A DNA stretch of 64,000 bases, taken from IMG/VR virus record IMGVR_UViG_3300036851_000172, positions 1 through 64,000 of that record, one strand, 5' to 3'. How positions within the stretch are numbered: the stretch's first letter is position 1; every line of letters starts with the position of its first letter. This stretch comes from a virus. Shown one piece after another: positions 5,148-59,350 of this stretch. The notes under the pieces are model-generated. The model was not told where the DNA came from, did not search any database, and worked only from the letters and a program-made list of their open reading frames with translations. Both the position numbers and the translations under genes were made by a program.

Positions 5148-5173
5148 GACTTTTACCGCACATCAATCAACTG

Positions 5174-6286: not shown

Positions 6287-6296
6287 GCCGGGCTCC

Positions 6297-7109: not shown

Positions 7110-7110
7110 G

Positions 7111-7296: not shown

Positions 7297-7300
7297 GGCG

Positions 7301-7672: not shown

Positions 7673-7802
7673 GGGACAGAACGAAGGACCGGGGCAGTGG
7701 GGCGAGCTTGGCTCCCCGAACTTCGGCTTGAGCCCGGAGGCATCAGCGGCCGACCGGTGGGGTGCGATTGTCGCTGCAAGGCCCGGTCCTTCGTTCTGTC
7801 CC
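7673..7802. repeat. long inverted repeat in the leftward operon leader
   Basis: Arms GGGACAGAACGAAGGACCGG (7673 onward) and its complement ending at 7802 pair over 21-22 bp, separated by 86 bp. It lies between the leftward promoter and the first gene, so the transcript would start with a large hairpin. Phage 2 lacks it: there the flanks join directly. Could be an inserted miniature element or a cis-acting RNA. Confidence 0.75.
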
Positions 7803-8657: not shown

Positions 8658-8923
8658 GCCTGCGCCGAGATGATGGATATTGGACGCGCGACAGGCGTGG
8701 TGCCGGCCAGAAGCCGCCATGCCTTCTCTTGGTCGGCTTGGAAATCGACCATCGAGCGACGGGTGATGATTCCCGTCACATGCCGGCGCCAGACGCCGCA
8801 GGTCTTGTACCAGTCGAAGAGCACGAAGCGCACCGATGGGCCGACGCGGTAGCAGTCCGCGAACGACGTAAAGTTTATTTCCGGGGCATTTCCAAGGTCG
8901 ATCAGGTCGTCGAGTTCCGTCAA
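8651..8923 (-). CDS. conserved protein convergent with cro, 90 aa
   Basis: Runs against the rightward operon and overlaps the 3' end of cro by 7 nt. Its core (ADCYRVGPSVRFVLFDWYKT) matches the gene at the same place in phage 2 (54387-54641: SECYVIGPLVRFLMWDWFRL). A conserved minus-strand gene beyond cro could be expressed in the lysogen or damp rightward transcription by collision. Function unknown. Confidence 0.7.
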   Translation of the reverse strand: MTELDDLIDLGNAPEINFTSFADCYRVGPSVRFVLFDWYKTCGVWRRHVTGIITRRSMVDFQADQEKAWRLLAGTTPVARPISIISAQAH

Positions 8924-10243: not shown

Positions 10244-10801
10244 GTGGAAGTCATCGAGCAGCCACGTCGGCTCAAGTACTACCTCCACTCTCCGTGGACA
10301 GAAACAACAGACAAGTACCTCATTTCTAATTGGGGGAAGAAGGGCGTTCGTGACATTGCCAATTTCATTGGTGTGACAAAAAGTAGCGCAGCGGGTCGCG
10401 CCATGCGACTTGGGCTCAAGCGCCTGCAAGCGCCGCGGTTCAAGGGGCTTACCAATGGACCCCGGAAGCGACCAGCCCCCAAGCTGGTTCGTGACAAGCC
10501 ACCCAGGTTGCCGACAAAGGCTGCAACCGATCTCGCTCCGGACCAATCCAATTGCGCAATCAGCCTGATCGAGGCGAAGCCTCATCAATGCCGGTGGCCG
10601 CTGGATGAGCCGACCGCGGCAATGATGGTCTGTGGCGAAACCAAGTGCGAAGGCTCGTCCTACTGCATCCGGCATCACAACATCGCGTATCGCAAAAACT
10701 ATGTCGTTGACGAGCAAGACAAAATACGCCGGCACCATCACTGGAAGAAGGTTTGCGTTGCAAAGGTAACTCAATTCCTCTCCGAAGAGGCAAATACATG
10801 A
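10244..10801 (+). CDS. GcrA-like transcriptional regulator (phage 1)
   Basis: 185 aa, GTG start. N-terminal HTH-like segment (YLISNWGKKGVRDIANFIGV) followed by a linker and the GcrA C-terminal signature QCRWPLDEP...VCGETKCEGSSYCIRHH. GcrA is a sigma70 co-activator that reads CcrM-methylated GANTC in alphaproteobacteria. A phage copy could redirect host polymerase to phage promoters (inference). A second GcrA is at 61289 in phage 2. Confidence 0.75.
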   Translation: MEVIEQPRRLKYYLHSPWTETTDKYLISNWGKKGVRDIANFIGVTKSSAAGRAMRLGLKRLQAPRFKGLTNGPRKRPAPKLVRDKPPRLPTKAATDLAPDQSNCAISLIEAKPHQCRWPLDEPTAAMMVCGETKCEGSSYCIRHHNIAYRKNYVVDEQDKIRRHHHWKKVCVAKVTQFLSEEANT

Positions 10802-46671: not shown

Positions 46672-47178
46672 TTACCTCCGCCCGCTCGCAGACTGCTCAA
46701 CTGCAGTTGCGTGATCGATGCTGGCCTTTGTGTCCACGAGCCAGCCGGGCAAGCCATTCAATTCGATGTCGAGACCATGGTGGTTTGTTGCGCAGCCGAT
46801 GGCGTTCTGCTGTAGCAGGCTTGCGGTGCGCAGTATGTCCTTGAGCGCCGCGCGCAGTGTATTTGCCTCCTTCGCCCGCTCGTCCGCGATGGCGAGCGCG
46901 CGGCGCTTGGCGGCTTGGAGCCGCTCGTTCTCCTCGATCATCCGCTTGCCAATCGCTTCCAATTCAGCGTGAGATGCCCGCAGCCGCTTGATCTCGGCGT
47001 CTCGTTGCTCAAGCGACCAGATCAAGCCATTGATGGCGGTGATCGCGTCACTCGTATCCACGGTGCTGTCGTCGGCCAGTTCGGCGTTGTCCATGTCGCC
47101 GATGAAGCCCTCGAGCGTCACGAGGCATTGGCTCGCACCGACATCGTTGGCCTGGTACGTCTTGATCGTGTCGGCCAT
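46672..47178 (-). CDS. coiled-coil phage protein, 168 aa
   Basis: Complete copy of the gene cut off at 1-93. ATG at 47178 has GGAGG upstream. N-terminal acidic part (DMDNAELADDSTVDTSD) then a 70-residue coiled coil (LEQRDAEIKRLRASHAELEA...). Unknown role. Confidence 0.75.
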   Translation of the reverse strand: MADTIKTYQANDVGASQCLVTLEGFIGDMDNAELADDSTVDTSDAITAINGLIWSLEQRDAEIKRLRASHAELEAIGKRMIEENERLQAAKRRALAIADERAKEANTLRAALKDILRTASLLQQNAIGCATNHHGLDIELNGLPGWLVDTKASIDHATAVEQSASGRR

Positions 47179-47217
47179 TCGTACCTCCGCTGACTGCCTT
47201 GTCATCGACTGTAATCC

Positions 47218-47463
47218 TCAGTAGCCGCGCGCCGGATTGTCGCAATAGCCGTCGCGGTCGTAGTGGGTGTGGTATCGCCACCAGCCCTGACGGCCCGGGT
47301 TCTTGACTTCCATCAGCCTGCCCTCGAACGTCTCAAACCTGCCTTCATCGCGGGGCGTCCCAACCTGCCGGCGGTGGTCTATGCCATGGTCAGAGGTCGC
47401 TGACGCGCGACTTGAAGGCCGGGAGTCCTGCCGGGTTCCTTTACCGTCGATTCGGTCTGCCAC
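47218..47463 (-). CDS. small basic protein with aromatic C-terminus, 81 aa (copy 2)
   Basis: Homologue of 294-539, same GTG start and Shine-Dalgarno. N-terminal 41 residues are the same in both; the following segment differs (RFETFEGRLMEVKNPGRQ) before the shared DRDGYCDNPARGY end. Confidence 0.7.
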   Translation of the reverse strand: MADRIDGKGTRQDSRPSSRASATSDHGIDHRRQVGTPRDEGRFETFEGRLMEVKNPGRQGWWRYHTHYDRDGYCDNPARGY

Positions 47464-47493
47464 GATGAAGCTCCTACAGTTGTGATGTCTGCG

Positions 47494-47697
47494 CTACTTG
47501 CGCGCTGCCTCGATGTCCTCGACCGTGATCTTGCCGGCGAGCAGCAGTCGCAGCAGGATCGCCACGCACTCGGGCACTTGCCGCTCACCAAGAGCCCACC
47601 GCCGGCCGGTCCTAGGATCGGCGCCGACGAGCTGGGCCGCCCCGGCCTGAGAGAGGCTGAGGCGGCTGAGGGCGGCGCGGAATTGGTTGGCGGTCAC
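47494..47697 (-). CDS. HTH protein, 67 aa
   Basis: LSLSQAGAAQLVGADPRTGR RWALGERQVPECVAILLRLL: a compact XRE-like HTH with the RTGRRWA recognition helix. May bind the palindromes at the promoter 47951-47979 just upstream (inference). Confidence 0.72.
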   Translation of the reverse strand: MTANQFRAALSRLSLSQAGAAQLVGADPRTGRRWALGERQVPECVAILLRLLLAGKITVEDIEAARK

Positions 47698-47910
47698 TTA
47701 GATGTCCCCAGCTTTCAGCGCGCGGGCGACGCGCGCGAGGCCGTCATCATCAAGCCAGTGGCCGGATTGGGGATCGGCGATCCAGATGCCGCCCTCATCA
47801 TTCACATCGACCTCTCGACAGTTGTAGAGCGTCTTAACGCCATCGATCAGTGCCCCTCGATCGTTTTCGATCGCCGCTTTGATCCACTCTTGGTTGGTCA
47901 TCGTCGTCAT
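47698..47910 (-). CDS. hypothetical protein, 70 aa
   Basis: Start MTTMTNQEWIKAAIENDRGA with GGAG 6 nt upstream. Ends GLARVARALKAGDI. First gene after the internal promoter. Confidence 0.64.
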   Translation of the reverse strand: MTTMTNQEWIKAAIENDRGALIDGVKTLYNCREVDVNDEGGIWIADPQSGHWLDDDGLARVARALKAGDI

Positions 47911-47950
47911 CTGTTTCTCCATCGCCGGGCAGGATTGCCCTTGCATTTCC

Positions 47951-47979
47951 CTTATAGGGCATCTGGCCCTACGTGTCAA
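47951..47979 (-). promoter_or_regulatory. internal promoter with palindromic operators
   Basis: Minus-strand TTGACA (47974-47979), 17-bp spacer, TATAAG (47951-47956). The spacer holds TAGGGC-N5-GCCCTA (47955-47971), and TGGCCCTA recurs at 47981-47988. A near-consensus regulated promoter inside the left operon, downstream of int, so these genes could be on in the lysogen. Confidence 0.7.
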
Positions 47980-48012
47980 GTGGCCCTATAGCAGTCTACT
48001 GAAATGTCGAAC

Positions 48013-48243
48013 TCACGCGGCGGACGGCAACGGCTGGCCTACGCGCGCTGTTATCACTTCGCATAGTTCCGGCAGCACGCGGTCGCCGTATTCGACGCGG
48101 AGATAGTCAGCAGCAACACCAGCGACGACACAGGCCGCTTCATCGAGGCCAAGCCCGCGCTCCATGGCGCGATGGATGGCGTCTGAAACCTCGTTCGCGA
48201 GGTCATTTGGAATCGGCCCGGTCACGATCTCGAATTCTGTCAC
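48013..48243 (-). CDS. hypothetical protein, 76 aa
   Basis: MTEFEIVTGPIPNDLANEVS DAIHRAMERGLGLDEAACVV... helical. Unknown function. Confidence 0.66.
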   Translation of the reverse strand: MTEFEIVTGPIPNDLANEVSDAIHRAMERGLGLDEAACVVAGVAADYLRVEYGDRVLPELCEVITARVGQPLPSAA

Positions 48244-48284
48244 GGCTACCTCCGAAAATTGCAGTCTGACGCACTGCTATAGGT

Positions 48285-48500
48285 TCACGCGGCACTCTTC
48301 TTTGGCACAGACTTCGCCGAGCGGACCCACTTTCTCGGGTCGGTGATCTCGTCATAGCGCCGCGAGCACGGACCGCACAGGTCGAGAATGCCGTGCATGA
48401 GGGTGACGTCCTTGCGCGGGTCTTCGATGCAAACCTTGCGCTTTCGATTGTCCGTCCTGATCTCATCATCGCAGCCGTCGCAAAATTCCTTCGTTGCCAT
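48285..48500 (-). CDS. Cys-rich zinc-binding-like protein, 71 aa
   Basis: EFCDGCDDEI and LCGPCSRRYDEI give two CxxC pairs about 35 residues apart, a zinc-ribbon layout. Basic C-terminus (KSVPKKSAA). Unknown role. Confidence 0.68.
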   Translation of the reverse strand: MATKEFCDGCDDEIRTDNRKRKVCIEDPRKDVTLMHGILDLCGPCSRRYDEITDPRKWVRSAKSVPKKSAA

Positions 48501-48516
48501 TTACCTCTCCTATCGG

Positions 48517-48806
48517 TCACGACGCATGTGTGAGTGCGCGCTCGAGCCCGGCCACGTCGTCGGCGAGCATCCGCACGAAGGACGTGCGCTCGGGATATCG
48601 CGCGCAGATATCAAGGCTCATCCGCACGCGCCCGCTGCGCAGATGACGAGCGGCGGCCAAGCGCTCAAGCGGGGGCGGCACCAAGCCGTGAACTCCTGGT
48701 GCGTCCTATTTACGTCCCACGACGGGAGTTCCGCGTCCGTTCGCGTGGCGCAAAGCGCTGAAATGTCGGTGGTGGACGTTCCGGATATATATGGCGGTTT
48801 CAGCAT
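48517..48806 (-). pseudogene. frameshifted copy of the integrase-downstream gene
   Basis: Homologue of 2297-2605. The frame opens with MLKPPYISGTSTTDISALCA and meets a stop after AAGACG (48618). One frame over, MSLDICARYPERTSFVRMLA DDVAGLERAL continues to 48517 in line with the phage 1 protein. A 1-bp loss near 48630 explains it. Either a decayed gene or a sequencing error. Confidence 0.7.
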
Positions 48807-48876
48807 TTTCAAAGCCTTAGCTTTCCCTACGGAGGGGTATAATTTCCCCCGGTTCGCGGGGTGTTCTGTCGAGGTG
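48797..48876. repeat. 80-bp perfect direct repeat, copy 2 (candidate att region)
   Basis: Identical to 2596-2675, 46,201 bp away. See that entry. Confidence 0.4.
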
Positions 48877-49788
48877 AATCACGGCCGCCATGGCGTTGAG
48901 GCGCTGTTCCGAGAAGCGCGTGTAGCGCTTTACCATCTGCTCGGACATCCCGATCATGTCGGATATCTGCCTGGTGTTGGCGCCTGCCCGCAGGAGCCGT
49001 ACACAGGCGGTGCCGCGTAGTCCGTGCATCACGAGGCCTTCCTCAGCTTCCGGCCCCAGCGCTTCCTGCCGCAGGGGCGCCAGCGCGTTGTTCGTATCGC
49101 GCTCGTGCGCCCACATCCCGGTCAGGCGCCGACGTGTCCATGGCTTGCCGGCGGGGTGAAGGAGGATGAAGCCCGGCCGACGCTCCCAAGTTGCCAAGGC
49201 CTTGATCAGTGTTTCGGTAAACGGCACCCAAACCTGTTTCTTGGTCTTCTTCTGGGTGACATTGATTCCGGGGTGCCCCTCGTAGTCCTCAATGTCGGTC
49301 CAGCGCATCTTGACCAGATCGGAGCCCCGCTGCCCGGTGTTGGCAGCAAGAGTGATCGCGCGGCTGAGGGCTTCGCGGGCGTGAGTTTCACCCAGAAACA
49401 CCTGTTCATCGGTCCAAGGGATGTGGCCGCCGTCCGACCCCTCAGCCTCACATCCGTAGGTGATAGGATGCGGCAGCAAATCCCGCACCAGCGCCCACTT
49501 TTCGCAGCGCCGCAACGCCGATAGTGCCGCTTCCTGCTTCGCGGGCCACTCGGCCAGCCCGTCAAGATAGGCCTGGATGATGGAGGGCCGCATTTCGTGG
49601 ACGAAATAGGCGCCGAGCGTGTCGGGCCGTTCGGCCAAGCGCAGCTCGCGTCCCCACAGATCGCGGGTCGCCTCCGCATACTTCGTCCATTTCGGATTCT
49701 GCTCCGACATGAAGGCTTTGATCACGGCTGCAAATCGTCCCTTCACGACCCTACCTGCGCGTTTCCGCGGCTGCTCGTCTTGTGGCAT
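48817..49788 (-). CDS. int: tyrosine-recombinase integrase of phage 2
   Basis: 323 aa, about 90% identical to the phage 1 integrase, same catalytic set (TGQRGSDL Arg, HGLR pair, VKRYTRF Tyr). Such similarity means both probably use the same attachment site, which explains head-to-tail prophages. Overlaps the RHH gene by 38 nt. Confidence 0.95.
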   Translation of the reverse strand: MPQDEQPRKRAGRVVKGRFAAVIKAFMSEQNPKWTKYAEATRDLWGRELRLAERPDTLGAYFVHEMRPSIIQAYLDGLAEWPAKQEAALSALRRCEKWALVRDLLPHPITYGCEAEGSDGGHIPWTDEQVFLGETHAREALSRAITLAANTGQRGSDLVKMRWTDIEDYEGHPGINVTQKKTKKQVWVPFTETLIKALATWERRPGFILLHPAGKPWTRRRLTGMWAHERDTNNALAPLRQEALGPEAEEGLVMHGLRGTACVRLLRAGANTRQISDMIGMSEQMVKRYTRFSEQRLNAMAAVIHLDRTPREPGEIIPLRRES

Positions 49789-49999
49789 CTCGCACCCGAT
49801 CGGCTGATAAAACGGGCGATAGTGTCACGATGGATTGTCGACGGCTAGCCAGCGCCTCCCGAATAATGTGGAGGATCTGGCCATTGATGCTGCGGCATTC
49901 GTCGCGCGCCCACTCCTCGAGCGCGGCGCGATCGTCCGGAGTCATGTAGACGTGGGCCTCAGACGTCCGACCTGGTTCCTTGCGCGGTTTGGTGGTCAT
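49751..49999 (-). CDS. Arc-like RHH DNA-binding protein (phage 2)
   Basis: 82 aa, MTTKPRKEPGRTSEAHVYMT then the RHH helices (DRAALEEWARDECRSINGQI LHIIREAL). Homologue of 3550-3828. Same overlap with int. Confidence 0.82.
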   Translation of the reverse strand: MTTKPRKEPGRTSEAHVYMTPDDRAALEEWARDECRSINGQILHIIREALASRRQSIVTLSPVLSADRVRDATRRAAAETRR

Positions 50000-50015
50000 G
50001 GCATCAACTCGTCGA

Positions 50016-50135
50016 TCATCGCCAAGGCGGCACAGCCGCGTTCCTCACGACCAACCACACGATTGCCGCCCCGATGAGGGCGCCGATCGCCATCGGCAGG
50101 AGCAGATACCAGATCGGAATGGTCATCGTCGCCAT
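50016..50135 (-). CDS. one-helix membrane peptide, 39 aa
   Basis: MATMTIPIWYLLLPMAIGAL IGAAIVWLVVRNAAVPPWR. Overlaps the HNH gene end by 13 nt. Unknown. Confidence 0.52.
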   Translation of the reverse strand: MATMTIPIWYLLLPMAIGALIGAAIVWLVVRNAAVPPWR

Positions 50136-50497
50136 AGTGGTTTGCCGCTGTCCCGCCAATAGGCGCCGCCGGCAAGCGGCCGCTTGATCCCTGACGCATA
50201 CGTCCCCGGCAACGGCCGCCATTGCACCGACTTGATTCCCCGATGCAGTGCTCGCAACCGATCCGACTTCGCCCGGTTGGATGCTTCATCACCCGTCTTG
50301 CCACGATGGCAACGGATGTGGGCTGGTGCCAGATTGTCGAAGGTGTCCGAGCCTCCGAGCCATAACGGCTTGACGTGCTCTACCTCCCAACGCTCTCCGC
50401 ATTCGACGAAGATCTTCGTCTGGCAGATGTGACAGAGTCCGCGGGCGGCATCGAAGATGAGGACTTTCTGTGCACGGGTGAGGCGACGGCGTTGCAT
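50123..50497 (-). CDS. HNH endonuclease
   Basis: 124 aa. ARGLCHICQTKIFVECGERW EVEHVKPLWLGGSDTFDNLA PAHIRCHRGKT: CxxC, EVEHVKP, N and H of an HNH nuclease. Set in an early operon; could serve recombination or packaging-end processing. TTG at 50506 is another possible start. Confidence 0.88.
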   Translation of the reverse strand: MQRRRLTRAQKVLIFDAARGLCHICQTKIFVECGERWEVEHVKPLWLGGSDTFDNLAPAHIRCHRGKTGDEASNRAKSDRLRALHRGIKSVQWRPLPGTYASGIKRPLAGGAYWRDSGKPLWRR

Positions 50498-50498
50498 G

Positions 50499-50759
50499 TC
50501 AGTCAAACGTTTCGATGTTGTAGCGCATGCGCTGAAACGGATTCGGTTTGCTGCCTTGCGGACAGATCGCGATGTTTGCTTCCAGGCCGTCGATGCTCAC
50601 GCGTGCGCCTTGCATGTCGAGCCCGGGCTCAAGTCCAAGGAACTGAAACGGCAGGTCGCATTGCGAGCATTTGATCGTGATTTCAGCCATGAAGCCGCCG
50701 ATGTCTTCGAGCCGTGCGACGGCGACCTTGGCGTGGAAGTTTTCGTGCTTGCAGGTCAT
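50499..50759 (-). CDS. zinc-binding phage protein, 86 aa
   Basis: ITIKCSQCDLPFQFLGLEPG LDMQGARVSIDGLEANIAIC P: a CxxC and a later Cys, with a widespread phage pattern (KCxxCGxPFxFxG). Unknown role. ATGA overlap with its upstream gene. Confidence 0.74.
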   Translation of the reverse strand: MTCKHENFHAKVAVARLEDIGGFMAEITIKCSQCDLPFQFLGLEPGLDMQGARVSIDGLEANIAICPQGSKPNPFQRMRYNIETFD

Positions 50760-50983
50760 TCGGCTGCCTCCAGCAGATCGTCACCGCGCTTATATCTGAT
50801 CGCCTCACGTCCTTCGTTGGTGATGACGTATCCGTCTTTGACGAGACGAAGCATCCCATGCGGATGCACCAGGCTGCGATAGATACCGGTCGGAATATGA
50901 GGATCACGTTCCATCACTGAACCATTGGCAGCTACAAGGAGGACGAGGCGCTGTGGCGTGGTGAGCTTCGGGCGTTGGCTCAC
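50756..50983 (-). CDS. putative winged-helix protein, 75 aa
   Basis: LTTPQRLVLLVAANGSVMER, GIYRSLVHPHGMLRLVKDGY VITNEGREAIRYKRG: helix-helix-wing (NEGRE) pattern of small winged helices. Possible regulator. Confidence 0.64.
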   Translation of the reverse strand: MSQRPKLTTPQRLVLLVAANGSVMERDPHIPTGIYRSLVHPHGMLRLVKDGYVITNEGREAIRYKRGDDLLEAAE

Positions 50984-50984
50984 C

Positions 50985-51149
50985 TCAAAAGCTCCCGAAA
51001 CTCATGATGGCGACGATCGCGCCGACAAGGACGACAGCGTACAAGATGCGCTCCCGTCTCTTGCGATGAGCGATGATCGGTTCCTGCTTGTAGTAGCGCT
51101 CAGGGAACCGTTGCATCGGCGGCGGGACTCCCCAGTTGCGATGGGTCAT
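50985..51149 (-). CDS. small membrane protein, 54 aa
   Basis: Polar N-terminus (MTHRNWGVPPPMQRFPERYY KQEPIIAHRKRRER) and one C-terminal membrane helix (ILYAVVLVGAIVAIMSFG). Good Shine-Dalgarno (GGAG); ATGA overlap with the upstream gene. Confidence 0.62.
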   Translation of the reverse strand: MTHRNWGVPPPMQRFPERYYKQEPIIAHRKRRERILYAVVLVGAIVAIMSFGSF

Positions 51150-51496
51150 CTTAACATCTCCTCCGGATGCAGCGTCTCCTCGATCAGGTCGAGCGCGCGT
51201 TTAATGACCGGGTCCGACTTGACCGGCGCGAGCTGTGCCTGCAGGACACGCAGGACGTCACGGTAATTGCAGCAATCGGCGAAGAGCCCGGTCCACGCAT
51301 TCACCGCGACGCACACGCGGGATGCGACGAATGGCGATGTGAAATCGATGGTGTTGCCGTTGGCGTCCTTGACGTCGACGCAGTGGTCGAGACCGGGATG
51401 GCGTTCGACAGCGCGCCACGGAGTCTTACCGACGGTGGAATCCGGTTGGGTATTTGCTGGGGTCACCCGCGAGCCGTGTACGTGTGTTACAGTCAT
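51146..51496 (-). CDS. hypothetical protein, 116 aa
   Basis: MTVTHVHGSRVTPANTQPDS ... CVDVKDANGNTIDFTSPFVA SRVCVAVNAWTGL; a pattern common in phage hypothetical proteins (DANG-x-I plus AVNA). Unknown function. Confidence 0.7.
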   Translation of the reverse strand: MTVTHVHGSRVTPANTQPDSTVGKTPWRAVERHPGLDHCVDVKDANGNTIDFTSPFVASRVCVAVNAWTGLFADCCNYRDVLRVLQAQLAPVKSDPVIKRALDLIEETLHPEEMLR

Positions 51497-51696
51497 GGGT
51501 CACCTGTGGTCTCGGTTTGACGATCCGCCGAGGACATGAATCCGCTCAGCAGCGCGGGTGTCGTGGCCGGTGAGACTAGGACATCACCAGCCACGACACT
51601 TGCCGCCCTCTGTCCAACTGCCGTGAGATGCTCGCCCATGCGGCGGGCAAATGCAGAGGCCTCGTGGCCTTCATTCTTCGAGTGGTTGTAGCGCAA
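51493..51696 (-). CDS. hypothetical protein, 67 aa (TTG start, possibly truncated)
   Basis: The frame remains open upstream of the TTG through ITCTCGLRY with no ATG or GTG before a stop. A 1-bp change could have removed the original start near 51734. Ends ADRQTETTGDP. Unknown. Confidence 0.5.
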   Translation of the reverse strand: MRYNHSKNEGHEASAFARRMGEHLTAVGQRAASVVAGDVLVSPATTPALLSGFMSSADRQTETTGDP

Positions 51697-51735
51697 GCCG
51701 CAGGTGCAGGTGATTCGCGTTTGCCAGCGGTCATG

Positions 51736-51843
51736 TCACGACCACCCCAGTATGATCTGAACTGCCATCACCACGTTCACGCATCCCGCCAGCATGAGAG
51801 CGGACGAGACCAGAGCGACGGTGTTGAGAGCGGCAGCGGTCAT
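51736..51843 (-). CDS. one-helix membrane peptide, 35 aa
   Basis: MTAAALNTVALVSSALMLAG CVNVVMAVQIILGWS. ATGA-coupled to the coiled-coil gene upstream. Unknown. Confidence 0.52.
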   Translation of the reverse strand: MTAAALNTVALVSSALMLAGCVNVVMAVQIILGWS

Positions 51844-52217
51844 TGCTGTGCCGTCGCCTCTTCGGCCTCGGCCATCGGTGCCGGCTTGACCAATCGCGGC
51901 GGTCCATCGAGCGCCGCGGCCTTCTCCTTTAGTTTTGCCAGAGTTTCCGCCAGCGCATCGCGGGCGATCCTGGTGACGGCTTGTCGGCGCTTGACCTCGG
52001 TGAGATGGTGCTCGGCGTCGGCGGCCTCGCCCGCGAGCATGTTGTCGGTCTCGTCCAGCTCCTTGATGTGGTTGGAGAGAAATGTTTGGACGCGATCGAT
52101 CGAGTAGTCGGCCGGCTGTGGCGCGAATTCCGCGGCGGGGTGCTCCAATGGGGCGACGTTGCGCAACTGCGTTTCGACGTCACGGTGCCAGTCGGGATTT
52201 CGCTTGCGTTTGAACAT
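51840..52217 (-). CDS. coiled-coil protein, 125 aa
   Basis: Basic start (MFKRKRNPDWHRDVETQLRN), then two helices (VQTFLSNHIKELDETDNMLA; DALAETLAKLKEKAAAL) and an acidic end. Unknown role. Confidence 0.66.
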   Translation of the reverse strand: MFKRKRNPDWHRDVETQLRNVAPLEHPAAEFAPQPADYSIDRVQTFLSNHIKELDETDNMLAGEAADAEHHLTEVKRRQAVTRIARDALAETLAKLKEKAAALDGPPRLVKPAPMAEAEEATAQQ

Positions 52218-52246
52218 TGGCGCGCTCTCCGGTTTGGGTTGATGGG

Positions 52247-52393
52247 TTACGCGTCACGATCTGTAGATTCACCAGGACGATCGAAGGGGCTATGTGCGCC
52301 GCCGTCCGCGATCATGAGCAGCGCGGCGACGAAGGCGCTGAGCGCGATGAGCGCGATGAGCGCGGCGAGGTCCTCGGCGATCCAGCGGATCAT
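52247..52393 (-). CDS. one-helix membrane protein, 48 aa
   Basis: MIRWIAEDLAALIALIALSA FVAALLMIADGGAHSPFD. Homologue of 7301-7414 with an inserted ALIA repeat (a 9-bp tandem duplication, GCGCTCATC-like, visible in the DNA). Confidence 0.62.
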   Translation of the reverse strand: MIRWIAEDLAALIALIALSAFVAALLMIADGGAHSPFDRPGESTDRDA

Positions 52394-52617
52394 GACTTCA
52401 AAGCCTCCCGACATTCCGCGCAAACGGGGCGCTCGAATTTTAGACTGGCGTAGAGCAGCTTCCGGAACGCCTCTGCATCCAGACCGTGTGCCTCGGCGTG
52501 CGCAGCCGTCAGCAACTCCATGGATGCGGTCGATGGATCGAAGTAATAGGCGAGGCGCGGATCATGTTTGATCCGCTGCAGCAGGTGGCTGATGGCCTTG
52601 TGGGCGGCGGCGCTCAT
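52390..52617 (-). CDS. hypothetical helical protein, 75 aa
   Basis: Start MSAAAHKAISHLLQRIKHDP; ends FERPVCAECREALKS with a CxxC. Coupled to genes on both sides. Unknown. Confidence 0.64.
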   Translation of the reverse strand: MSAAAHKAISHLLQRIKHDPRLAYYFDPSTASMELLTAAHAEAHGLDAEAFRKLLYASLKFERPVCAECREALKS

Positions 52618-52904
52618 CACGCGGCCTCCGATGTGCAATTGAACGCGCCCTTGCCGTGGCTCTTACCGCCGCAAGCGCACTCACACTTCATGATGCGCCC
52701 GGTTGCGTTGATGCAACGGGCGTCGCATTCGTGCTTGGAGGCGAAGGGCTTGTACTCGACGCGGCGGGTTGCGCGGTGCGAAGTCATCGCCGGCGAGAAG
52801 CCCCAGAAATTTTCCGGCTTGGTTTGGAGCGAGCCGTCATGCCAAACGCGGGATAGCTCGATGGTCTGACCGTTCACGTCCGCGAAGTATTTGATGTTCG
52901 CCAT
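52617..52904 (-). CDS. zinc-binding-like phage protein, 95 aa
   Basis: MANIKYFADVNGQTIELSRV WHDGS... then CDARCINATGRIMKCECACG GKSHGKG: Cys cluster at the C-terminus. Known as a recurrent phage hypothetical; function unknown. Confidence 0.72.
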   Translation of the reverse strand: MANIKYFADVNGQTIELSRVWHDGSLQTKPENFWGFSPAMTSHRATRRVEYKPFASKHECDARCINATGRIMKCECACGGKSHGKGAFNCTSEAA

Positions 52905-52923
52905 GGCTGACCCCGTTGTTCGA

Positions 52924-53154
52924 TCACCGCCGCCGGACCGCGCCGGCCGAGGCGAAGGAGAGCGTCTCAAACTGAGGCTTGTCCTGCGCGGCGAGCATCC
53001 GAAGGCAGAAGGAACAAGTGACTTCGGCGCGGTTGTCGGTGAGGTTCATTCCGCCCGACAGCACCCGGATCCGATTGCAGAGCGTGCCGTTGACGGTGCC
53101 GCCGAACACGCCGGGCCGAACCTTCTGCATATGCGTCTTGGTCATGTTGCCCAT
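52924..53154 (-). CDS. first gene of the phage 2 leftward operon, 76 aa
   Basis: MGNMTKTHMQKVRPGVFGGT VNGTLCNRIRVLSGGMNLTD...; homologue of 7411-7650. First gene behind PL2. Confidence 0.77.
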   Translation of the reverse strand: MGNMTKTHMQKVRPGVFGGTVNGTLCNRIRVLSGGMNLTDNRAEVTCSFCLRMLAAQDKPQFETLSFASAGAVRRR

Positions 53155-53310: not shown

Positions 53311-53715
53311 TCAGCGTTTGGCTTGGGCTGGCGGCCGGAAATCGCCGTTGAGTTCCGGGAATGGAACGTGGGCCTGTTGGTCGCAGTGCCATGCGATATT
53401 GGAATTTACGACCTCCGGCGGCCTGCCGTCGTCATAGATGCCGATCAAGTCGTCCTTCTCGCCCGTATAACCGCCGAACCCGCCCTTAGCGTTCAGGCGG
53501 ACGCAGACGTGCCACATCATCCCCATGTGCCGGACCGGTGCGGCGACGCTGGCGTTCTTGATGCTGTCCGGGTCTTTCCATAGGCGACCCTTATTGGCGA
53601 GGATGATGGCCTTGGCATCGGGTGGGGCGACCGCCGCTGCATCGCTATCCGTCGATGTGCGGCACGCTGCCGCACCGGCGGCCAGGCAGGCGATGAAACA
53701 GATTCGCCTGATCAC
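53311..53715 (-). CDS. lipoprotein co-expressed with the phage 2 repressor
   Basis: 134 aa, GTG start overlapping the repressor stop (GTGA). Signal peptide with lipobox-like end (FIACLAAGAAACRT), then a soluble domain with DAKAIILANKGRLWKDPDSI KNASV and WHVCVRLNAKGGFGGYTG. As the second gene of the immunity operon it would be made in lysogens, so superinfection exclusion or another lysogenic-conversion role is likely (inference). Phage 1 has no gene here. Confidence 0.78.
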   Translation of the reverse strand: MIRRICFIACLAAGAAACRTSTDSDAAAVAPPDAKAIILANKGRLWKDPDSIKNASVAAPVRHMGMMWHVCVRLNAKGGFGGYTGEKDDLIGIYDDGRPPEVVNSNIAWHCDQQAHVPFPELNGDFRPPAQAKR

Positions 53716-54056
53716 CTGCGTCTCCTAGATTGCGGCCCGCTGGTCGCCAGTGCCTGAAGCACCTCGATCGCCGTAGCTCGCCGTTCGGCCGGAATCGATT
53801 TCACGAGCGCTACAAGCTCGTCGCCGGTCACTGTTGCGCGCTTGTCGCCCTCACCGGTCAGTAGCCAACCGGCTGAGACGTTGAAGGCCTTCGCGTACAG
53901 CTCTGCCGCATCTTGCGGGATTTTGGCGGTCTGGCCGTTCTCGTGTGACGCGTAGGTCGAAGGGTGCCAGCGATGCCGCAGTGCCGCCGACCGCGCTGAG
54001 CGGAATCCAGCCTCTATTCGGGCTGTCCGGAGCCGATCTTTTGGGAGTTCCGCCAT
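53712..54056 (-). CDS. XRE-family repressor of phage 2 (CI-like)
   Basis: 114 aa from MAELPKDRLRTARIEAGFRS; ATG at 54080 is an alternative that would begin next to an operator. HTH in residues about 8-60 (SARSAALRHRWHPSTYASHE) followed by FNVSAGWLLTGEGDK, the usual XRE layout. No self-cleavage domain. Not similar to the phage 1 repressor; operators differ too, so the phages are heteroimmune. Confidence 0.84.
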   Translation of the reverse strand: MAELPKDRLRTARIEAGFRSARSAALRHRWHPSTYASHENGQTAKIPQDAAELYAKAFNVSAGWLLTGEGDKRATVTGDELVALVKSIPAERRATAIEVLQALATSGPQSRRRR

Positions 54057-54082
54057 GCCCGCGAGTTTTCCACGGGACATTA

Positions 54083-54095
54083 ACAGAAATCCTGT
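54083..54095. promoter_or_regulatory. operator OR2 (phage 2)
   Basis: ACAGAAATCCTGT, left arm perfect; between the repressor start and the cro promoter. Confidence 0.65.
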
Positions 54096-54124
54096 TGACT
54101 GACTTAACAGAAGTTCTGTAGATT
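54095..54124 (+). promoter_or_regulatory. rightward promoter PR of phage 2
   Basis: TTGACT (54095-54100), 18-bp spacer, TAGATT (54119-54124). The predicted start point is about 2 nt before the cro ATG at 54133, giving a nearly leaderless mRNA. Confidence 0.6.
54107..54119. promoter_or_regulatory. operator OR1 (phage 2)
   Basis: ACAGAAGTTCTGT, perfect 6-bp arms; fills the PR spacer. Confidence 0.72.
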
Positions 54125-54132
54125 GCGATTCG

Positions 54133-54384
54133 ATGAACACGGACGCCTCACATCATACGGTCGCTGACGTGATCGACGCCTTCGGTGGCAACACCGGCTT
54201 TGCCCGGCTGCTCGCGCTCAAGAACCCATCGAACGCCAGCGAGATGCGTCGGTCCGGGTCGATCCATGTGCGTTATTGGCCGGCGATCATTGATGAGGCG
54301 CGGAAGCGCGGCCCCGAGCTGGATTGGATTACGGCGGATGCGTTGATGTTCATGCACGCGCCGCAAGCCGAGGCCGCGCAATGA
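54133..54384 (+). CDS. Cro-position regulator (phage 2)
   Basis: 83 aa. MNTDASHHTVADVIDAFGGN TGFARLLALKNPSNASEMRR: the DVIDAFGGNTGFARLL pattern is a YdaS/Cro-like HTH. Divergent from the repressor. No Shine-Dalgarno, as for phage 1 cro. Confidence 0.8.
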   Translation: MNTDASHHTVADVIDAFGGNTGFARLLALKNPSNASEMRRSGSIHVRYWPAIIDEARKRGPELDWITADALMFMHAPQAEAAQ

Positions 54385-54386
54385 CA

Positions 54387-54641
54387 TCAGTGCAAGTTCG
54401 CATCGATGCCATTGATGGTGGGCGCCCGGCAGTTGGCGATCTCCTGCCACGATCGTCGCTGATCCTCCTCCAAGCCGATCAGTGGTCTGGTCAACGCGCC
54501 GACGATGCGACGTTGCCAGATGCCATTCAAACGGAACCAGTCCCACATCAAAAATCGGACCAATGGGCCGATCACGTAGCACTCGCTCATCGAGTGACAG
54601 TGAATTTCGGGATAGTTTCCGTCGTCGATCACAGGCTCCAT
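54387..54641 (-). CDS. conserved protein convergent with cro, 84 aa (phage 2)
   Basis: Start MEPVIDDGNYPEIHCHSMSE; core CYVIGPLVRFLMWDWFRLNG matches phage 1 8651-8923. Stop lies 2 bp past the cro stop. Function unknown; its conservation across different immunity types is notable. Confidence 0.7.
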   Translation of the reverse strand: MEPVIDDGNYPEIHCHSMSECYVIGPLVRFLMWDWFRLNGIWQRRIVGALTRPLIGLEEDQRRSWQEIANCRAPTINGIDANLH

Positions 54642-54801
54642 GCGGTTGTCCCTCCGGTACGCACATCCACCGGTAAACAATGTACACAGAGGTGCTGTGA
54701 TAAGAACATAGGCAATCTGACACCATTGCCGTACGCTGTGGATTGTGCGCTGTTCCAATACGGAACCGGGCATTCCCTGATTGACAAATCGAACTTTCCA
54801 G

Positions 54802-55085
54802 TTCGGCACCGCGTGGGTGTAGCCCCCATCCGCAGCGGTGGGTGTGAGCCGGCGGTGACTCTGGCTTCCCGCGGTGCCGAAACCGTTTCAGCGTTGCGTC
54901 GCGTTCCTCCTGTTGGTGGCGCGTGCGCTCGCGTTGGCTCAGAGCGCCCGTCCCAACAGGAAAGGAACACAACGTCGCCGCGACGGGCAAACTGCGGCGC
55001 GGCCGATGGGTACGCGGGACAGTCGTCCCGACCGGCCGCGCCGCGTTCTTCCCTGATGGGAGTCGGGGGAGACGAGGCATCAGGG
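54802..55085 (+). other. chain of four inverted repeats in a noncoding leader
   Basis: In the 54642-55129 gap: TTCGGCACCGCG/CGCGGTGCCGAA (54802-54813 with 54870-54881), CCTGTTGG/CCAACAGG (54909-54916 with 54953-54960), GCGGCGCGGCCG/CGGCCGCGCCGC (54994-55005 with 55033-55044) with GGGAC/GTCCC inside, and CCCTGATG/CATCAGGG (55051-55058 with 55078-55085). All arms are perfect. Suggests a structured RNA, for example an antitermination (put-like) leader or a small RNA. Confidence 0.6.
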
Positions 55086-55129
55086 AATCCGTTGTTGTTG
55101 TCGTGTGTGTCGCGTGGGGGCGTTGCGTC

Positions 55130-55387
55130 ATGTCGAGCGAATCACTATCGAGTTCAGTTCCGGGAACAAGCGCAAAGAGGGGACAGTCTCGTCCCCGTAG
55201 GGACAAAATTGTCCCTCGCAAATTTGGGGCCGTCGCCAAGGTCTTATGGACCAAGCCGGCGGCCGTCATCGCCCACATCGCGGGATGCGACGTGCGAACC
55301 GGCAAGCGCATCTTGCGCGGCGAGGCGCCGATTCCCGTCATCGTCTTGCTGGAGGCCTGCAACGAGATGGTGCGCCCGCAGGAATGA
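55130..55387 (+). CDS. small DNA-binding-like protein, 85 aa
   Basis: Ser/Arg-rich start (MSSESLSSSVPGTSAKRGQS) then WTKPAAVIAHIAGCDVRTGK RILRGEAPIPVIVLLEACNE, an HTH-like helical pair common in Bradyrhizobium-type phages. First gene after the hairpin region. Confidence 0.66.
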   Translation: MSSESLSSSVPGTSAKRGQSRPRRDKIVPRKFGAVAKVLWTKPAAVIAHIAGCDVRTGKRILRGEAPIPVIVLLEACNEMVRPQE

Positions 55388-55475
55388 CCAGCGGCAACCG
55401 GGTTACAGCCGCCCGGCGCGTGTGGCCCCGAACGTGGAAAATTCGGGGCGCGCAATTTCACGGTACCCAGAGCGC

Positions 55476-55925
55476 ATGAGCGCAAATCCCGGAGGCCGCA
55501 AGCCGAAGGGGCTGACAGGAACGGCGAGCGCGAGCGCTGTCCTGTCGGCGGATTATCTCGCGCCAGCCGACCCGGCGGCTGTTGAGGGCGTCTGCGGACG
55601 TGAGCCACCGGCGCTCCCATTCCTAGCGAACGCGCAATTGATCTGTGGCCCTATGAAGGAACCGACCCGCCGGGCTGTGGAGAGTATGAAACGTTGCGCT
55701 AGTAGGCTCGCTGCCGGGCGAACGGCAGTAGCGGTCGGAACGTCGGTTGTCGCCGACCGCACCCATTCCTTCCGAGGCCCTACGTCAACCGCCGTATTAG
55801 CCATTCAGGGACGGCCCGCGACCGAAAAGGCCTCGGCTCAGGCGTCGCCTGAATCAGGAGACGCCGGGCGGATGCAGGACCGATGCGTGTCCATCCGCCC
55901 ACCTTTCATCCGAGGTGCCTCATGA
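55476..55925 (+). CDS. uncertain ORF, 149 aa
   Basis: MSANPGGRKPKGLTGTASAS ... ends RPPFIRGAS and overlaps the next ATG (ATGA). The first 30 residues look credible, the rest is Ala/Arg-rich without a clear fold. May be a real small gene with a decayed 3' part or noncoding. Confidence 0.35.
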   Translation: MSANPGGRKPKGLTGTASASAVLSADYLAPADPAAVEGVCGREPPALPFLANAQLICGPMKEPTRRAVESMKRCASRLAAGRTAVAVGTSVVADRTHSFRGPTSTAVLAIQGRPATEKASAQASPESGDAGRMQDRCVSIRPPFIRGAS

Positions 55926-56158
55926 GCGACGGCACGTACAAAGACTTCCTCTGCGAATACCCGTTCGACGGATCCACGTGGTCGTTCACGATCAAGGCCC
56001 GCGACCATGTGGAAGCGGAGGAACGGATCCGCCGCATGTGCTGGGCGGATGTGAAGGGTGAGATCTGTGCCGTCATTCCGGCATCGGTTCCGGGCGCCGG
56101 CTTGTTCGTCCGCGCGACCTGCTGGCTGCGGAACACGTTCGTGCGAGGTGCGGCATGA
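55922..56158 (+). CDS. hypothetical protein, 78 aa
   Basis: MSDGTYKDFLCEYPFDGSTW SFTIKARDHVEAEERIRRMC W...; a small beta-alpha protein, possibly membrane-associated near the end (GLFVRATCWLRNTFV). ATGA-coupled. Confidence 0.68.
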   Translation: MSDGTYKDFLCEYPFDGSTWSFTIKARDHVEAEERIRRMCWADVKGEICAVIPASVPGAGLFVRATCWLRNTFVRGAA

Positions 56159-56423: not shown

Positions 56424-57029
56424 ATGAAAACTGAGACAGCAATCGGCGCAGCTATGGAGCGGGCCGGCTTCAATTCCGCGCAGTTGCGGCTACGCCAGGC
56501 CGGTCTGGATGCGCTCAGAAAGCATCATCGCAACATAGGGCGTGCGGTTCCGACGCTGGAAATCGTCGTCGAAGACGATCCCGAACTGATCGGCGAGTTG
56601 GTGCTGAATTATCTTTGCGGTCTCGACGCCGAGGCCAACGGCGGCGGCCGCCCATGCACTGGTGACCAGACATCTGGTGCCGCCGCTCGCAACGGGGCGG
56701 GCCAGGCGTTTGATGCTCACCCGACGGGAAGTGCCCGCCCCGTTCGCGAACCCTCGGCCTCCGATCGTGCCGCGGCCAGCCGCGTCGCTGCGCAGATCGC
56801 TGTGACGATATTCGATCGCGCGAAGACTGCCGACGGCCGCCCCTGGGGCAACGTCGGTGCTCACGAGCTTGATGGCATGGACCGCGACGGCGCGCTTGCG
56901 CGGGCGGTCAAGGCGCGACTGGGGCAACTCTCGAATCGCCAGCGTTTCCAGACATTGCGCGAGTTGATGGCGCCCGATGCCTTCGAGGCGTGCGTCGATG
57001 AGTTGCGGGAGCAATCGCATGACGCGTAA
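56424..57029 (+). CDS. hypothetical early protein, 201 aa
   Basis: Start MKTETAIGAAMERAGFNSAQ chosen for GGAGAG 4 nt upstream. Helical N-terminus, Gly/Ala/Arg linker and a helical C-terminus (GRPWGNVGAHELDGMDRDGA LARAVKARLG). Unknown function. Confidence 0.68.
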   Translation: MKTETAIGAAMERAGFNSAQLRLRQAGLDALRKHHRNIGRAVPTLEIVVEDDPELIGELVLNYLCGLDAEANGGGRPCTGDQTSGAAARNGAGQAFDAHPTGSARPVREPSASDRAAASRVAAQIAVTIFDRAKTADGRPWGNVGAHELDGMDRDGALARAVKARLGQLSNRQRFQTLRELMAPDAFEACVDELREQSHDA

Positions 57030-58176
57030 GAACTCCATGAATGGCGGCGCGGGTGGCCACAGAGCAGATGTCACCGATGACCATCCTCGAGGTGCCTCCG
57101 CGCCGTCCCCCGACCTCGTCACAACCATCTCCGAAATTCGCTATTGGCATCACCAGCGGGTGTTCGCGATGGATCAGCGAAAGCGGGCTGATCTCGCGCT
57201 CGGCGCCTTCCTGCGGGGCGTATTGGGTTGGTCGAGATCGTTACCGAAGGCAGAGGCTGAGGCCATCAATAGGCGTGCCGCCGATCTCATCGAGACCGGC
57301 GAGCGGATGCTCAAGCAAAAGCAGGGCCGCCCGATCCGTAAGACGGTCAACGGCGCCGATCCGCTCTATCAGGAGTGGGCGAGCTTCATCGAGGGATGCT
57401 TGAACGGGCGCGCGCACTATGTCGCGATCGAGGATAAGGCGGTGGCCGAGATGGAACGCCTTGCGGCATTGCTGCCGGTCGCGTCTTGGTTCAACGCCAA
57501 CGTCTTCTCATCCTCGTTCGTTTCGCTCGCGGTCATCATTGCGGAGACGGGCGACCTGTCTGGCTACGCCAACCCCGGCAAGGTCTGGAAGCGCATGGGC
57601 CTTGCCGTGATGAACGGCGTGCGCCAGGGCGGGTTGCGCAAGACCGCCTCGAAAGACGAATGGATCGCGCACGGGTATAGCGCCAAGCGCCGCTCGTTCA
57701 TGTTCGTCATCGGCGATGTGCTGGTCAAGAAGCAGGGCTATTTGCGCGAGGTCTATCTCGGGGAAAAGCAAAAGCAGCGCACGAAGGCGGTGGCAGCGGG
57801 ATTGACCGTCGCTCCGGCTGCCAAGATTCCGGAAAAGCGCAAGGCGGAATTCATCAGCGATGGCCACATCCACAAGATGTCCCAGCGCTATATGGAAAAA
57901 CGTCTGCTCAAAAATCTTTGGCAGGCGTGGCGGCGGGCCACCCCGAATCTGGAAACCAGTGAATTAGTGCCCGCCGCAAAAATAGAACCGCAGGCCGTCT
58001 CTCTCGTGAATTCCATTGGAGGTTTGCCTGTGGAGCGCTCGGCCAGGCTCGTTCAGCCAACCATACAAAACGTGCCGAGCGCATCTATTCCGGCGAGAGC
58101 CGGTAAGCGGCGGGCCAGGATCGACGCGAACTCCAATGTACCAGTGCCCGCCGCAAATCTATCGCCTACAACCTAA
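57019..58176 (+). CDS. IS110-like (Transposase_20) domain protein without RuvC part
   Basis: 385 aa. Residues about 125-285 follow the C-terminal half of IS110 transposases: MERLAALLPVASWF, FVSLAVIIAETGDLSGYANP GKVWKRMGLAV, GYSAKRRSFMFVIGDVLV, and MSQRYMEKRLLKNLWQAWR. The DEDD/RuvC half is missing and the N-terminus is a new helical region; the last 80 residues are Pro/Ala linker. No IS ends are seen. It sits in a coupled early operon, so looks domesticated. Confidence 0.68.
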   Translation: MTRKNSMNGGAGGHRADVTDDHPRGASAPSPDLVTTISEIRYWHHQRVFAMDQRKRADLALGAFLRGVLGWSRSLPKAEAEAINRRAADLIETGERMLKQKQGRPIRKTVNGADPLYQEWASFIEGCLNGRAHYVAIEDKAVAEMERLAALLPVASWFNANVFSSSFVSLAVIIAETGDLSGYANPGKVWKRMGLAVMNGVRQGGLRKTASKDEWIAHGYSAKRRSFMFVIGDVLVKKQGYLREVYLGEKQKQRTKAVAAGLTVAPAAKIPEKRKAEFISDGHIHKMSQRYMEKRLLKNLWQAWRRATPNLETSELVPAAKIEPQAVSLVNSIGGLPVERSARLVQPTIQNVPSASIPARAGKRRARIDANSNVPVPAANLSPTT

Positions 58177-58240
58177 TAACAGTTCGTCGGGTTGCGTGAT
58201 GTTGCTTGCGTATCGTTCACACGAATCGGGAGAAACGAAC

Positions 58241-59350
58241 GTGCAATTTCGCGATCATCCGGCCGTGCAAGGCAAGCGCGATTTCTATCCGGTCGATCCG
58301 CGCAAGCTCAAAGTGGACGACGCATACAATGTAAGAGACATGCAGGCGAAGGAGACGCGTGATCACATCGCCTGGCTGAAGGCATCGATCATCGCGGGCG
58401 GCGTGCACACTCCGCTGGAAGTCCGGCTCGACGGCAAGAATATCTTTGTCGTTGCAGGGCATTGCAGGCTGGCCGCCGTCCTCGAGGCGATCGAGGAAGG
58501 GAATCCGATCGCGACCGTACCCTGCATCCCGGAAGCCAAAGGTACCGACGAGATCGACCGCACGGTCAACCTAGTCATCTCGAATTCCGGCAAGCCGCTG
58601 TCACCATTGGAAGTGGCGAAGGTGGTCAAACGGCTCCAAGGCTACGGCTGGGAGCCGAAGCAGATCGCCGAACGGCTGGGCTGGAAGTCCACCAACACGG
58701 TCAAGCAACATCTCGACATGCTGGCGCTGCCGGAAGGCGTCAAGAAGCACGTCCGTGAAGGCAATGTCTCGGCGACGACAGCGCGTCATCTCGCGAAGGG
58801 CGTCGATCCGGACGAAGCCGAGAAGATGATCCAGGCGAACCTGGAAGAGAACCGGCGCATCAAGGGACCAAGGCGGCGAACGACAGTCACACGAAAAACG
58901 ATCGAGCGGGACAGGCCGAAGCCGCGAGCGGCCGAGGCCAAGTACGAGCCCCAGCCAGTTCCGGAACCGGTAGCGGCATCGGAAACTGTTTCGATTGTTT
59001 TCGGCAAGTCTGGCGGCGCAGGTGGCGGCAACAGCCTTTCGTCGCAGCCTCCAGAGCAGATGCCGGCTCCGGTGGCTGAGCAGCGTGAGACATCAATTCA
59101 GCCAGCCAATCCCGACTGGAACGGCCCAACGCTCGCCGACTGCCAAGTTCGGATTGAGTCGTTCGAACGCCCGCCCGCAGGCGTCAAAGACCTCATCGAC
59201 GCGCTCGCCCCCTTCGCCCACTGCGCCGAGTTGAATTTGCTCTATGCACGCGACGACAGCGAGGTGATCGAGGTTCTTGTCGGCGACATCAAGCGCGCTT
59301 GGAAGGCCTGGTCGAAGGCGACTGGCGCCGACGTGAAGGATGCAGCCTGA
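58241..59350 (+). CDS. ParB/Srx-domain DNA-binding protein
   Basis: 369 aa, GTG start with GGAG 8 nt upstream. FYPVDPRKLKVDDAYNVRDM, HTPLEVRLDGKNIFVVAGHC RLAAVLEA is the ParB/Srx box (CTP/ATP fold); HTH at WEPKQIAERLGWKSTNTVKQ HLDMLALP. The C-terminus is disordered then helical. Phage ParB-like proteins act as regulators or nucleases; which is not clear here. Confidence 0.85.
   Translation: MQFRDHPAVQGKRDFYPVDPRKLKVDDAYNVRDMQAKETRDHIAWLKASIIAGGVHTPLEVRLDGKNIFVVAGHCRLAAVLEAIEEGNPIATVPCIPEAKGTDEIDRTVNLVISNSGKPLSPLEVAKVVKRLQGYGWEPKQIAERLGWKSTNTVKQHLDMLALPEGVKKHVREGNVSATTARHLAKGVDPDEAEKMIQANLEENRRIKGPRRRTTVTRKTIERDRPKPRAAEAKYEPQPVPEPVAASETVSIVFGKSGGAGGGNSLSSQPPEQMPAPVAEQRETSIQPANPDWNGPTLADCQVRIESFERPPAGVKDLIDALAPFAHCAELNLLYARDDSEVIEVLVGDIKRAWKAWSKATGADVKDAA

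What the first reader, a model, noticed from the sequence alone, without database searches (positions are those of the whole stretch)
54802..55085. Chain of four perfect inverted repeats: possible new structured RNA
Arms of 12, 8, 12 and 8 bp follow one another in a 470-bp gap that lacks a credible gene, directly in the path of the rightward early transcript and upstream of the IS110-like gene. The density is far above chance. It could work like the HK022 put RNA, which modifies RNA polymerase, or encode a guide-like or regulatory RNA.
Basis: partly seen in the sequence, partly recalled or inferred. Interest (0 to 1): 0.7.

Follow-up and report, generated by a model that had tools for sequence, protein, structure and literature searches.

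The report
Phage hairpin chain beside guide-RNA array
The four hairpins are real and are the most strongly folding stretch of this soil-bacterium prophage DNA, but no relative could be found to show what they do; 1.6 to 3 kb further along the same gene block lies a recognisable TIGR guide-RNA array with its Tas protein, and that is the more important discovery here.

Summary
In detail: four perfect inverted repeats (arms 12, 9, 12, 10; loops 56, 36, 27, 19) fill 54802-55087. None of 10,000 shuffles reaches four, and it is the most structured stretch of the 64 kb. The gap is non-coding. The window holds two related prophages in tandem (Bradyrhizobium-like host); the chain lies between the immunity region and a small HTH-like early gene of the second. 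The only relative found of that gene keeps the 40-nt leader before its ATG but lacks the chain, so the chain is lineage-specific and covariation cannot be tested. Put RNA, C4 RNA and IS110 bridge RNA are not supported. The 'IS110-like' gene is instead a Tas protein (TIGR-Tas; NCBIfam E=1.6e-21, below the curated cut-off), followed by a ParB-like gene and accompanied by six stem-loop units with 30-nt loops: two 9-nt spacers flanked by CA/YG motifs in 9-5-9 spacing. Rhizobium phage RHph_X2_25 carries the same layout beside its Tas gene. Most likely the chain is a cis-acting structured leader of the early operon (inferred). The TIGR stem-loop array is the solid result.

The parts
54802..54881 (.). 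Hairpin 1: 12-bp perfect stem, 56-nt interior; cloverleaf-like fold on + (-47 kcal/mol)
54908..54961 (.). Hairpin 2: 9-bp perfect stem, 36-nt interior, extendable outward to about 54891-54980 with bulges
54994..55044 (.). Hairpin 3: 12-bp GC stem with GGGACAGTCGTCCC palindrome in its loop; the only one with partial resemblance to a TIGR unit (17 bits, chance level)
55049..55087 (.). Hairpin 4: 10-bp perfect stem, 19-nt loop
55088..55129 (+). G/T-rich leader ending GGGGGCGTTGCGTC, conserved before the start codon of the homologous gene in L103; begins where the chain ends
55130..55387 (+). Small HTH-like early gene in the cII position (85 aa); relative in G013/L103 (37% identity, E=8e-6)
55180..55215 (.). 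Two 16-bp palindromes GGGACANNNNNGTCCC inside the start of the HTH-like gene; with 55016-55029 the only three GGGAC..GTCCC palindromes in 73 kb
53712..54140 (-). Repressor (HTH) of prophage 2; operators ACAGAAnTTCTGT at 53229, 54083, 54107
54133..54384 (+). cro-position gene of prophage 2
   Evidence: position
54387..54641 (-). Small gene (84 aa), homologue of 8651-8923 in prophage 1 (38%)
56640..56687 (+). TIGR stem-loop unit 1: CG-N9-TG-N4-CCA-N9-TG
56694..56741 (+). TIGR stem-loop unit 2 (12-bp stem 56691-56744)
56977..58176 (+). ORF with Tas (TIGR-Tas Nop-domain) match over 57412-57933; start uncertain; the part after about 57938 overlaps the array and is absent from the RHph_X2_25 homologue
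57930..57977 (+). TIGR stem-loop unit 3
57987..58034 (+). TIGR stem-loop unit 4 (imperfect stem)
58035..58082 (+). TIGR stem-loop unit 5
58107..58154 (+). TIGR stem-loop unit 6
58199..59350 (+). ParB-like gene directly after tas and array (compare tasParB)

Best explanation
The chain is a lineage-specific, non-coding run of strong hairpins in the 5' region of the rightward early operon of the second prophage, directly before the leader of a small HTH-like regulator gene in the cII position. The same operon further on carries a TIGR-Tas locus: a Tas Nop-domain protein, a ParB-like protein and at least six stem-loop guide units. Most likely the chain acts in cis at the RNA level, as a structured or processed leader (RNase III-type stems) that sets how much of the transcript coming through from PR or from a promoter in 54642-54800 reaches the HTH-like and TIGR genes. 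Shown: the hairpins, their non-randomness, lack of coding, position, conserved leader after them, the TIGR array and its match to a second phage. Inferred: that the chain is transcribed, which strand, and that it acts in cis.
For: IRs and non-randomness. Non-coding. The chain ends at 55087 and the leader conserved with L103 starts at about 55088, then the ATG at 55130. The related phage keeps the HTH-like gene and its leader without the chain, so the chain is an added module. Prophage 1 has a comparable added element, a 21-bp perfect stem enclosing 88 nt between its PL operators and the first leftward gene, absent from the otherwise alignable PL leader of prophage 2. Adjacent TIGR locus: Tas match, ParB-like, six units on one layout, the same layout in RHph_X2_25, and a model trained on RHph_X2_25 only ranks window units 1, 2 and 3 in 64 kb.
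Against: No transcript data. Both strands fold about equally well and most pairs are plain Watson-Crick, which also suits a DNA-level element. No homologue of the chain, so no covariation. Hairpins in a GC-rich gap need have no function.
Confidence: 0.45

Rival explanations
1. The chain is an atypical or decayed subarray of the neighbouring TIGR system: palindromic stems whose loops once held, or in divergent form still hold, two spacers.
For: Published stem-loop arrays come in separate subarrays, with variable palindromes and sometimes variable linkers. The chain lies 1.6 kb from proven units in the same gene block. Hairpin 3 has CG-N9-CG-N4-AG-N10-C|G and ranks just behind true units with the held-out model (17.0 bits).
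Against: Hairpins 1 and 2 lack the CA/YG motifs on either strand and hairpin 4's 19-nt loop cannot hold two 8-12-nt spacers. Hairpin 3 scores 17 bits on both strands, like chance hits at 13837 and 47068.
Confidence: 0.2
2. The inverted repeats act as DNA: binding sites, cruciforms or recombination remnants.
For: Stems are nearly perfect, and 82 of 108 pairs serve both strands. Three GGGAC..GTCCC palindromes, the only ones in 73 kb, lie at 55016, 55180 and 55200, which looks like an operator set for the HTH-like product.
Against: The four stems share no sequence with one another, unlike operators or REP elements; long interiors of 36-56 nt are unusual for protein sites; no target-site duplication is evident for an insertion.
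Confidence: 0.17
3. Put- or nut-like antiterminator on the rightward early transcript.
For: Position between cro and the cII-position gene matches putR of HK022 (PMC9378689).
Against: No second copy behind PL of the same prophage; four hairpins rather than two; no sequence match to the HK022 cro-cII gap; no + strand intrinsic terminator was found in 53600-56000, though no wider search was made.
Confidence: 0.08
4. An independent trans-acting small RNA or RNAs.
For: Hairpin 1 folds alone into a compact cloverleaf.
Against: No Rfam match, including C4 antisense RNA, even at permissive thresholds; no clear promoter or terminator of its own.
Confidence: 0.1

Closest known systems
TIGR-Tas stem-loop arrays with TasA (Faure et al. 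2025, PMC12045711)
   Same: For the neighbouring locus 56640-58154: Tas Nop-domain protein without detectable nuclease domain, units of palindromic stem plus two 9-nt spacers flanked by short conserved motifs, ParB-like gene next to tas, phage location.
   Different: The main text describes tasParB together with dual-repeat arrays; here ParB sits with stem-loop units of fixed 30-nt loop. The Tas match is below the NCBIfam cut-off.
HK022 put RNA (PMC9378689)
   Same: Non-coding hairpins between the cro and cII positions on the rightward early transcript.
   Different: Four hairpins over 285 bp, not two in 70 nt; no putL partner; no sequence similarity; host RNAP contact untested.
IS110 bridge RNA (PMC11208160)
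   Same: Tas proteins and IS110 share the RNA-binding domain.
   Different: No DEDD domain found (no Pfam match), no IS ends, and the chain is 1.9 kb away, not in a flank of the gene.
Lambda N-leader RNase III hairpin (from general knowledge, not tested)
   Same: Strong hairpin in an early-operon leader close to the first start codon; best analogue of the 21-bp stem in prophage 1 (7673-7802).
   Different: Four hairpins; no evidence of cleavage.

Membership tests
TIGR-Tas stem-loop array (units at 56640-58154) | Tas protein with Nop-type RNA-binding domain | tested here: met
   NF052498 E=1.6e-21, 77.3 bits (curated cut-off 100, so below it); whole-record search E=1.2e-23
TIGR-Tas stem-loop array (units at 56640-58154) | Tandem palindromic stems enclosing two 8-12-nt spacers, each flanked by short box C/D-like motifs | tested here: met
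   Six units, all 9-5-9, loops exactly 30 nt; five have 8 or more bp perfect stems. Box names are assigned by position only.
TIGR-Tas stem-loop array (units at 56640-58154) | Compensatory stem changes among units | tested here: met
   13 units from two phages: 97.4% paired, covariation 0.811 vs 0.163 shuffled; partly built in, because units were chosen for their stems
TIGR-Tas stem-loop array (units at 56640-58154) | Expression and processing into guide RNAs bound by Tas; DNA targeting | not testable with these tools
   no RNA data; no perfect spacer A/B target pair in 1.23 Mb of related sequence
   Hairpins 1, 2, 4 no; hairpin 3 inconclusive at 17 bits
HK022 put RNA | About 70 nt, two stem-loops, in two related copies behind PL and PR | tested here: not met
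   four hairpins, single copy, no sequence match
HK022 put RNA | Binds the RNA polymerase beta' zinc-binding domain and suppresses termination | not testable with these tools
   needs transcription assays
C4 antisense RNA (RF01695) | Covariance-model match | tested here: not met
   no match in the chain even at E=10
IS110 bridge RNA | Non-coding RNA in the flank of a DEDD plus Tnp_20 recombinase gene within IS ends | tested here: not met
   no Pfam DEDD or Tnp_20 match; chain 1.9 kb away

The most novel reading that the evidence does not exclude
The chain is a second, structurally different class of guide or scaffold RNA belonging to the TIGR-TasA-ParB locus of this prophage (for example a pre-guide subarray with long variable linkers), so that one phage early operon encodes two kinds of stem-loop RNA for a single Tas protein.
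Probability: 0.12. Interest if true: 0.8.

Novelty: new member of a known kind. Interest (0 to 1): 0.58.

Why it matters
What nuclease-less TasA systems do is stated as open in the discovery paper, mostly because the loci come from metagenomes. This work places a TasA stem-loop array next to a ParB-like gene in a temperate phage, and shows the same array layout in a cultured phage, RHph_X2_25 of Sinorhizobium americanum, whose Tas gene is annotated only as 'hypothetical protein'. That phage-host pair could be used to test TasA function directly. The hairpin chain itself matters less until it is shown to be transcribed.

Tried and rejected
(1) C4 antisense RNA from a remembered motif: a pattern scan of 2.9 million viral contigs gave 13 hits, none with the closing stem and none recognisable as this element; Rfam C4 no match. 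(2) Homologues by DNA in phages, plasmids and 80 terminase-related viral loci: none. (3) Homologues by neighbouring proteins in viral and genome contigs: none, although the patterns used were poor; no host genome could be reached. (4) tRNA-like cloverleaf: no ARAGORN hit. (5) GGGACAG as a shared motif of both prophages' elements: 11 copies vs 9.3 expected, rejected. (6) Phage origin: palindromic iterons lie instead in a replication-gene candidate near 70.5 kb. (7) An early call used the HTH ORF one base out of frame; repeated correctly. (8) The chain as regular TIGR units: motif scans and two covariance models, not met. (9) Spacer targets: none.

Full report
Setting. The window is part of a 73,333-base virus record. 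Self-comparison shows two related prophages in tandem: positions 1-7632 match 47086-53142 in blocks at 73-96% identity, including two tyrosine integrases 89% identical. The first prophage's terminase is 71% identical to that of Bradyrhizobium phage ppBeUSDA76-2, so the host is probably Bradyrhizobium or a near relative (inference). The finding lies in the second prophage: repressor (-) 53712-54140, cro-position gene (+) 54133-54384, a small gene (-) 54387-54641 with a homologue in prophage 1 (38%), then the gap, then a small HTH-like gene (+) 55130-55387. Repressor operators ACAGAAnTTCTGT lie at 53229 (with a TTGACA-17-TATAAC promoter reading left) and at 54083 and 54107.

Observation. The four inverted repeats exist with arms 12, 9, 12, 10 and interiors 56, 36, 27, 19. 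No shuffle out of 10,000 has four, and no other 300-bp stretch of the window scores as high. The whole stretch folds with z -5.8 (+) and -8.9 (-). The second most structured place is a 21-bp perfect stem at 7673-7802 in prophage 1. Codon scores are not positive in any frame across the gap.

What the chain is not. Rfam has no match at gathering level, and only chance-level miRNA-type hits below it; C4 antisense RNA does not match here. HK022 put is about 70 nt with two stem-loops in two related copies (PMC9378689); the chain has no second copy, four hairpins and no sequence match to the HK022 cro-cII gap. The downstream 'IS110-like' gene is not an IS110 recombinase by Pfam and is 1.9 kb away.

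Relatives. DNA searches of phages, plasmids and 80 terminase-related viral loci found no copy of the chain. Searches by neighbouring proteins in viral and bacterial contigs found nothing, but their peptide patterns were weak, so absence there means little. One useful relative came from whole records: G013 (locus L103) has the HTH-like gene (37%, E=8e-6) behind a repressor and a cro-position gene, with the same leader before the start codon (GTGTGTC..GGGGGyGTTGCGTCATG). Its gap has no inverted repeat comparable to the chain (one 10-nt overlapping palindrome only) and modest structure (z -2.9).

The discovery next door. The ORF 56977-58176 matches NCBIfam NF052498, TIGR-Tas RNA-guided endonuclease, at E=1.6e-21 (77 bits, cut-off 100), over 57412-57933. 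[quoted passage not shown] and tasA genes in operon with a parB-like gene. In the window a ParB-like gene (58199-59350) follows directly. A plain list of perfect inverted repeats, made before any motif was known, holds five stems with interiors of exactly 30 nt at 56641, 56691, 57930, 58035 and 58107; in the whole 73 kb there are on average about 2.6 stems of 8 or more bp for any one loop length, and six for length 30, five of them within 1.5 kb. The interiors line up as (C)CA-N9-YG-N4-CCA-N9-Y|G; a sixth unit with a weaker stem lies at 57987-58034. Rhizobium phage RHph_X2_25, the only phage record with a similar Tas protein, has at least seven units of the same layout around its Tas gene, plus weaker or variant ones, one with a 12-nt second spacer. 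In 17 units compared, positions 0, 1, 18 and 19 are C in 16 or 17, position 13 is G in 14 and position 31 is G in 15, while the spacers vary. Thirteen units align without gaps; stem covariation is 0.811 against 0.163 in shuffles, with the caveat that most units were selected for their stems. As an independent check, a covariance model trained only on the Rhizobium phage ranks three window units first, second and third in 64 kb on both strands (28.8, 28.7, 20.7 bits); the other three window units score 17.2, 14.2 and 12.9 bits, within chance range, with that model.

Tested and not met for hairpins 1, 2 and 4 (no motif on either strand, or a loop too short). Hairpin 3 is inconclusive: CG-N9-CG-N4-AG-N10-C|G, 17 bits with both models, the same as chance hits elsewhere.

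Mechanism. The best-supported reading is a structured, non-coding segment in the early operon that sits in front of the conserved leader of the HTH-like gene and upstream of the TIGR genes, acting in cis on transcript processing or readthrough. Steps shown: structure, position, lack of coding, modular presence or absence. Steps inferred: transcription, strand, and cis action. That prophage 1 has its own unrelated strong stem in its PL leader, at a place where prophage 2 has none, makes early leaders a recurrent site for such elements. DNA-level function, a decayed TIGR subarray and a put-like element remain possible with lower odds.

Verdict. The TIGR-TasA stem-loop array beside a ParB-like gene, and its counterpart in a cultured Rhizobium phage, is a new member of a known kind. 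The main text of the discovery paper links ParB to dual-repeat arrays only, so the combination here may be a variant, but the supplement could not be read.

Noticed in passing
56640-58154: TIGR-Tas stem-loop guide array (six units, 30-nt loops, 9-5-9 spacing) with Tas ORF and ParB-like gene; main result of this report.
   Followed up: yes
L105 (MW960032.1, Rhizobium phage RHph_X2_25), locus 4302-6640: Unannotated TIGR stem-loop array around a Tas gene annotated as hypothetical protein (QWY83253.1); three units lie inside the annotated 5' end of the CDS, so its start may be too early or the array overlaps coding.
   Followed up: partly
57940-58176: The Tas ORF stays open through three or four array units, but the homologue in RHph_X2_25 stops just before; the C-terminal 80 codons may be array, not protein.
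   Followed up: partly
7673-7802: Prophage 1: 21-bp perfect inverted repeat enclosing 88 nt between the PL operators and the first leftward gene, the longest perfect stem-loop arm in 1.18 Mb of related sequence examined; prophage 2 lacks it at the alignable position (resembles an RNase III-type leader or an inserted element).
   Followed up: partly
1-7632 and 47086-53142: Two related prophages in tandem with 89% identical integrases and matching left ends (1-133 vs 47086-47218, 96%), suggesting serial integration at one attachment site.
   Followed up: partly
53229, 54083, 54107; 7857, 7894, 8325, 8371, 8405: Clear, different repressor operator sets of the two prophages (ACAGAAnTTCTGT versus TTACCnTGACGGTAA).
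   Followed up: no
55016-55029, 55180-55195, 55200-55215: The only three GGGAC..GTCCC palindromes in 73 kb cluster around the start of the HTH-like gene; possible autoregulatory operators.
   Followed up: no
L017 5131-7257 (record 65130-67256, outside the window): AAA ATPase ORF interrupted by what looks like an intein with a LAGLIDADG domain (Pfam match) at its Walker A motif.
   Followed up: no
L017 about 10540-10620 (record about 70540-70620): Palindromic repeats GAGACTGA/TCAGTCTC inside a gene that looks like a replication gene, probably the replication origin of prophage 2; similar iterons in L056 and L023.
   Followed up: no
L026 6556-6640: Another near-perfect long-stem element (GGACGGCAGC..GCTGCCGTCC) just upstream of a terminase gene in a related viral contig, after an intrinsic-terminator-like hairpin.
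   Followed up: no
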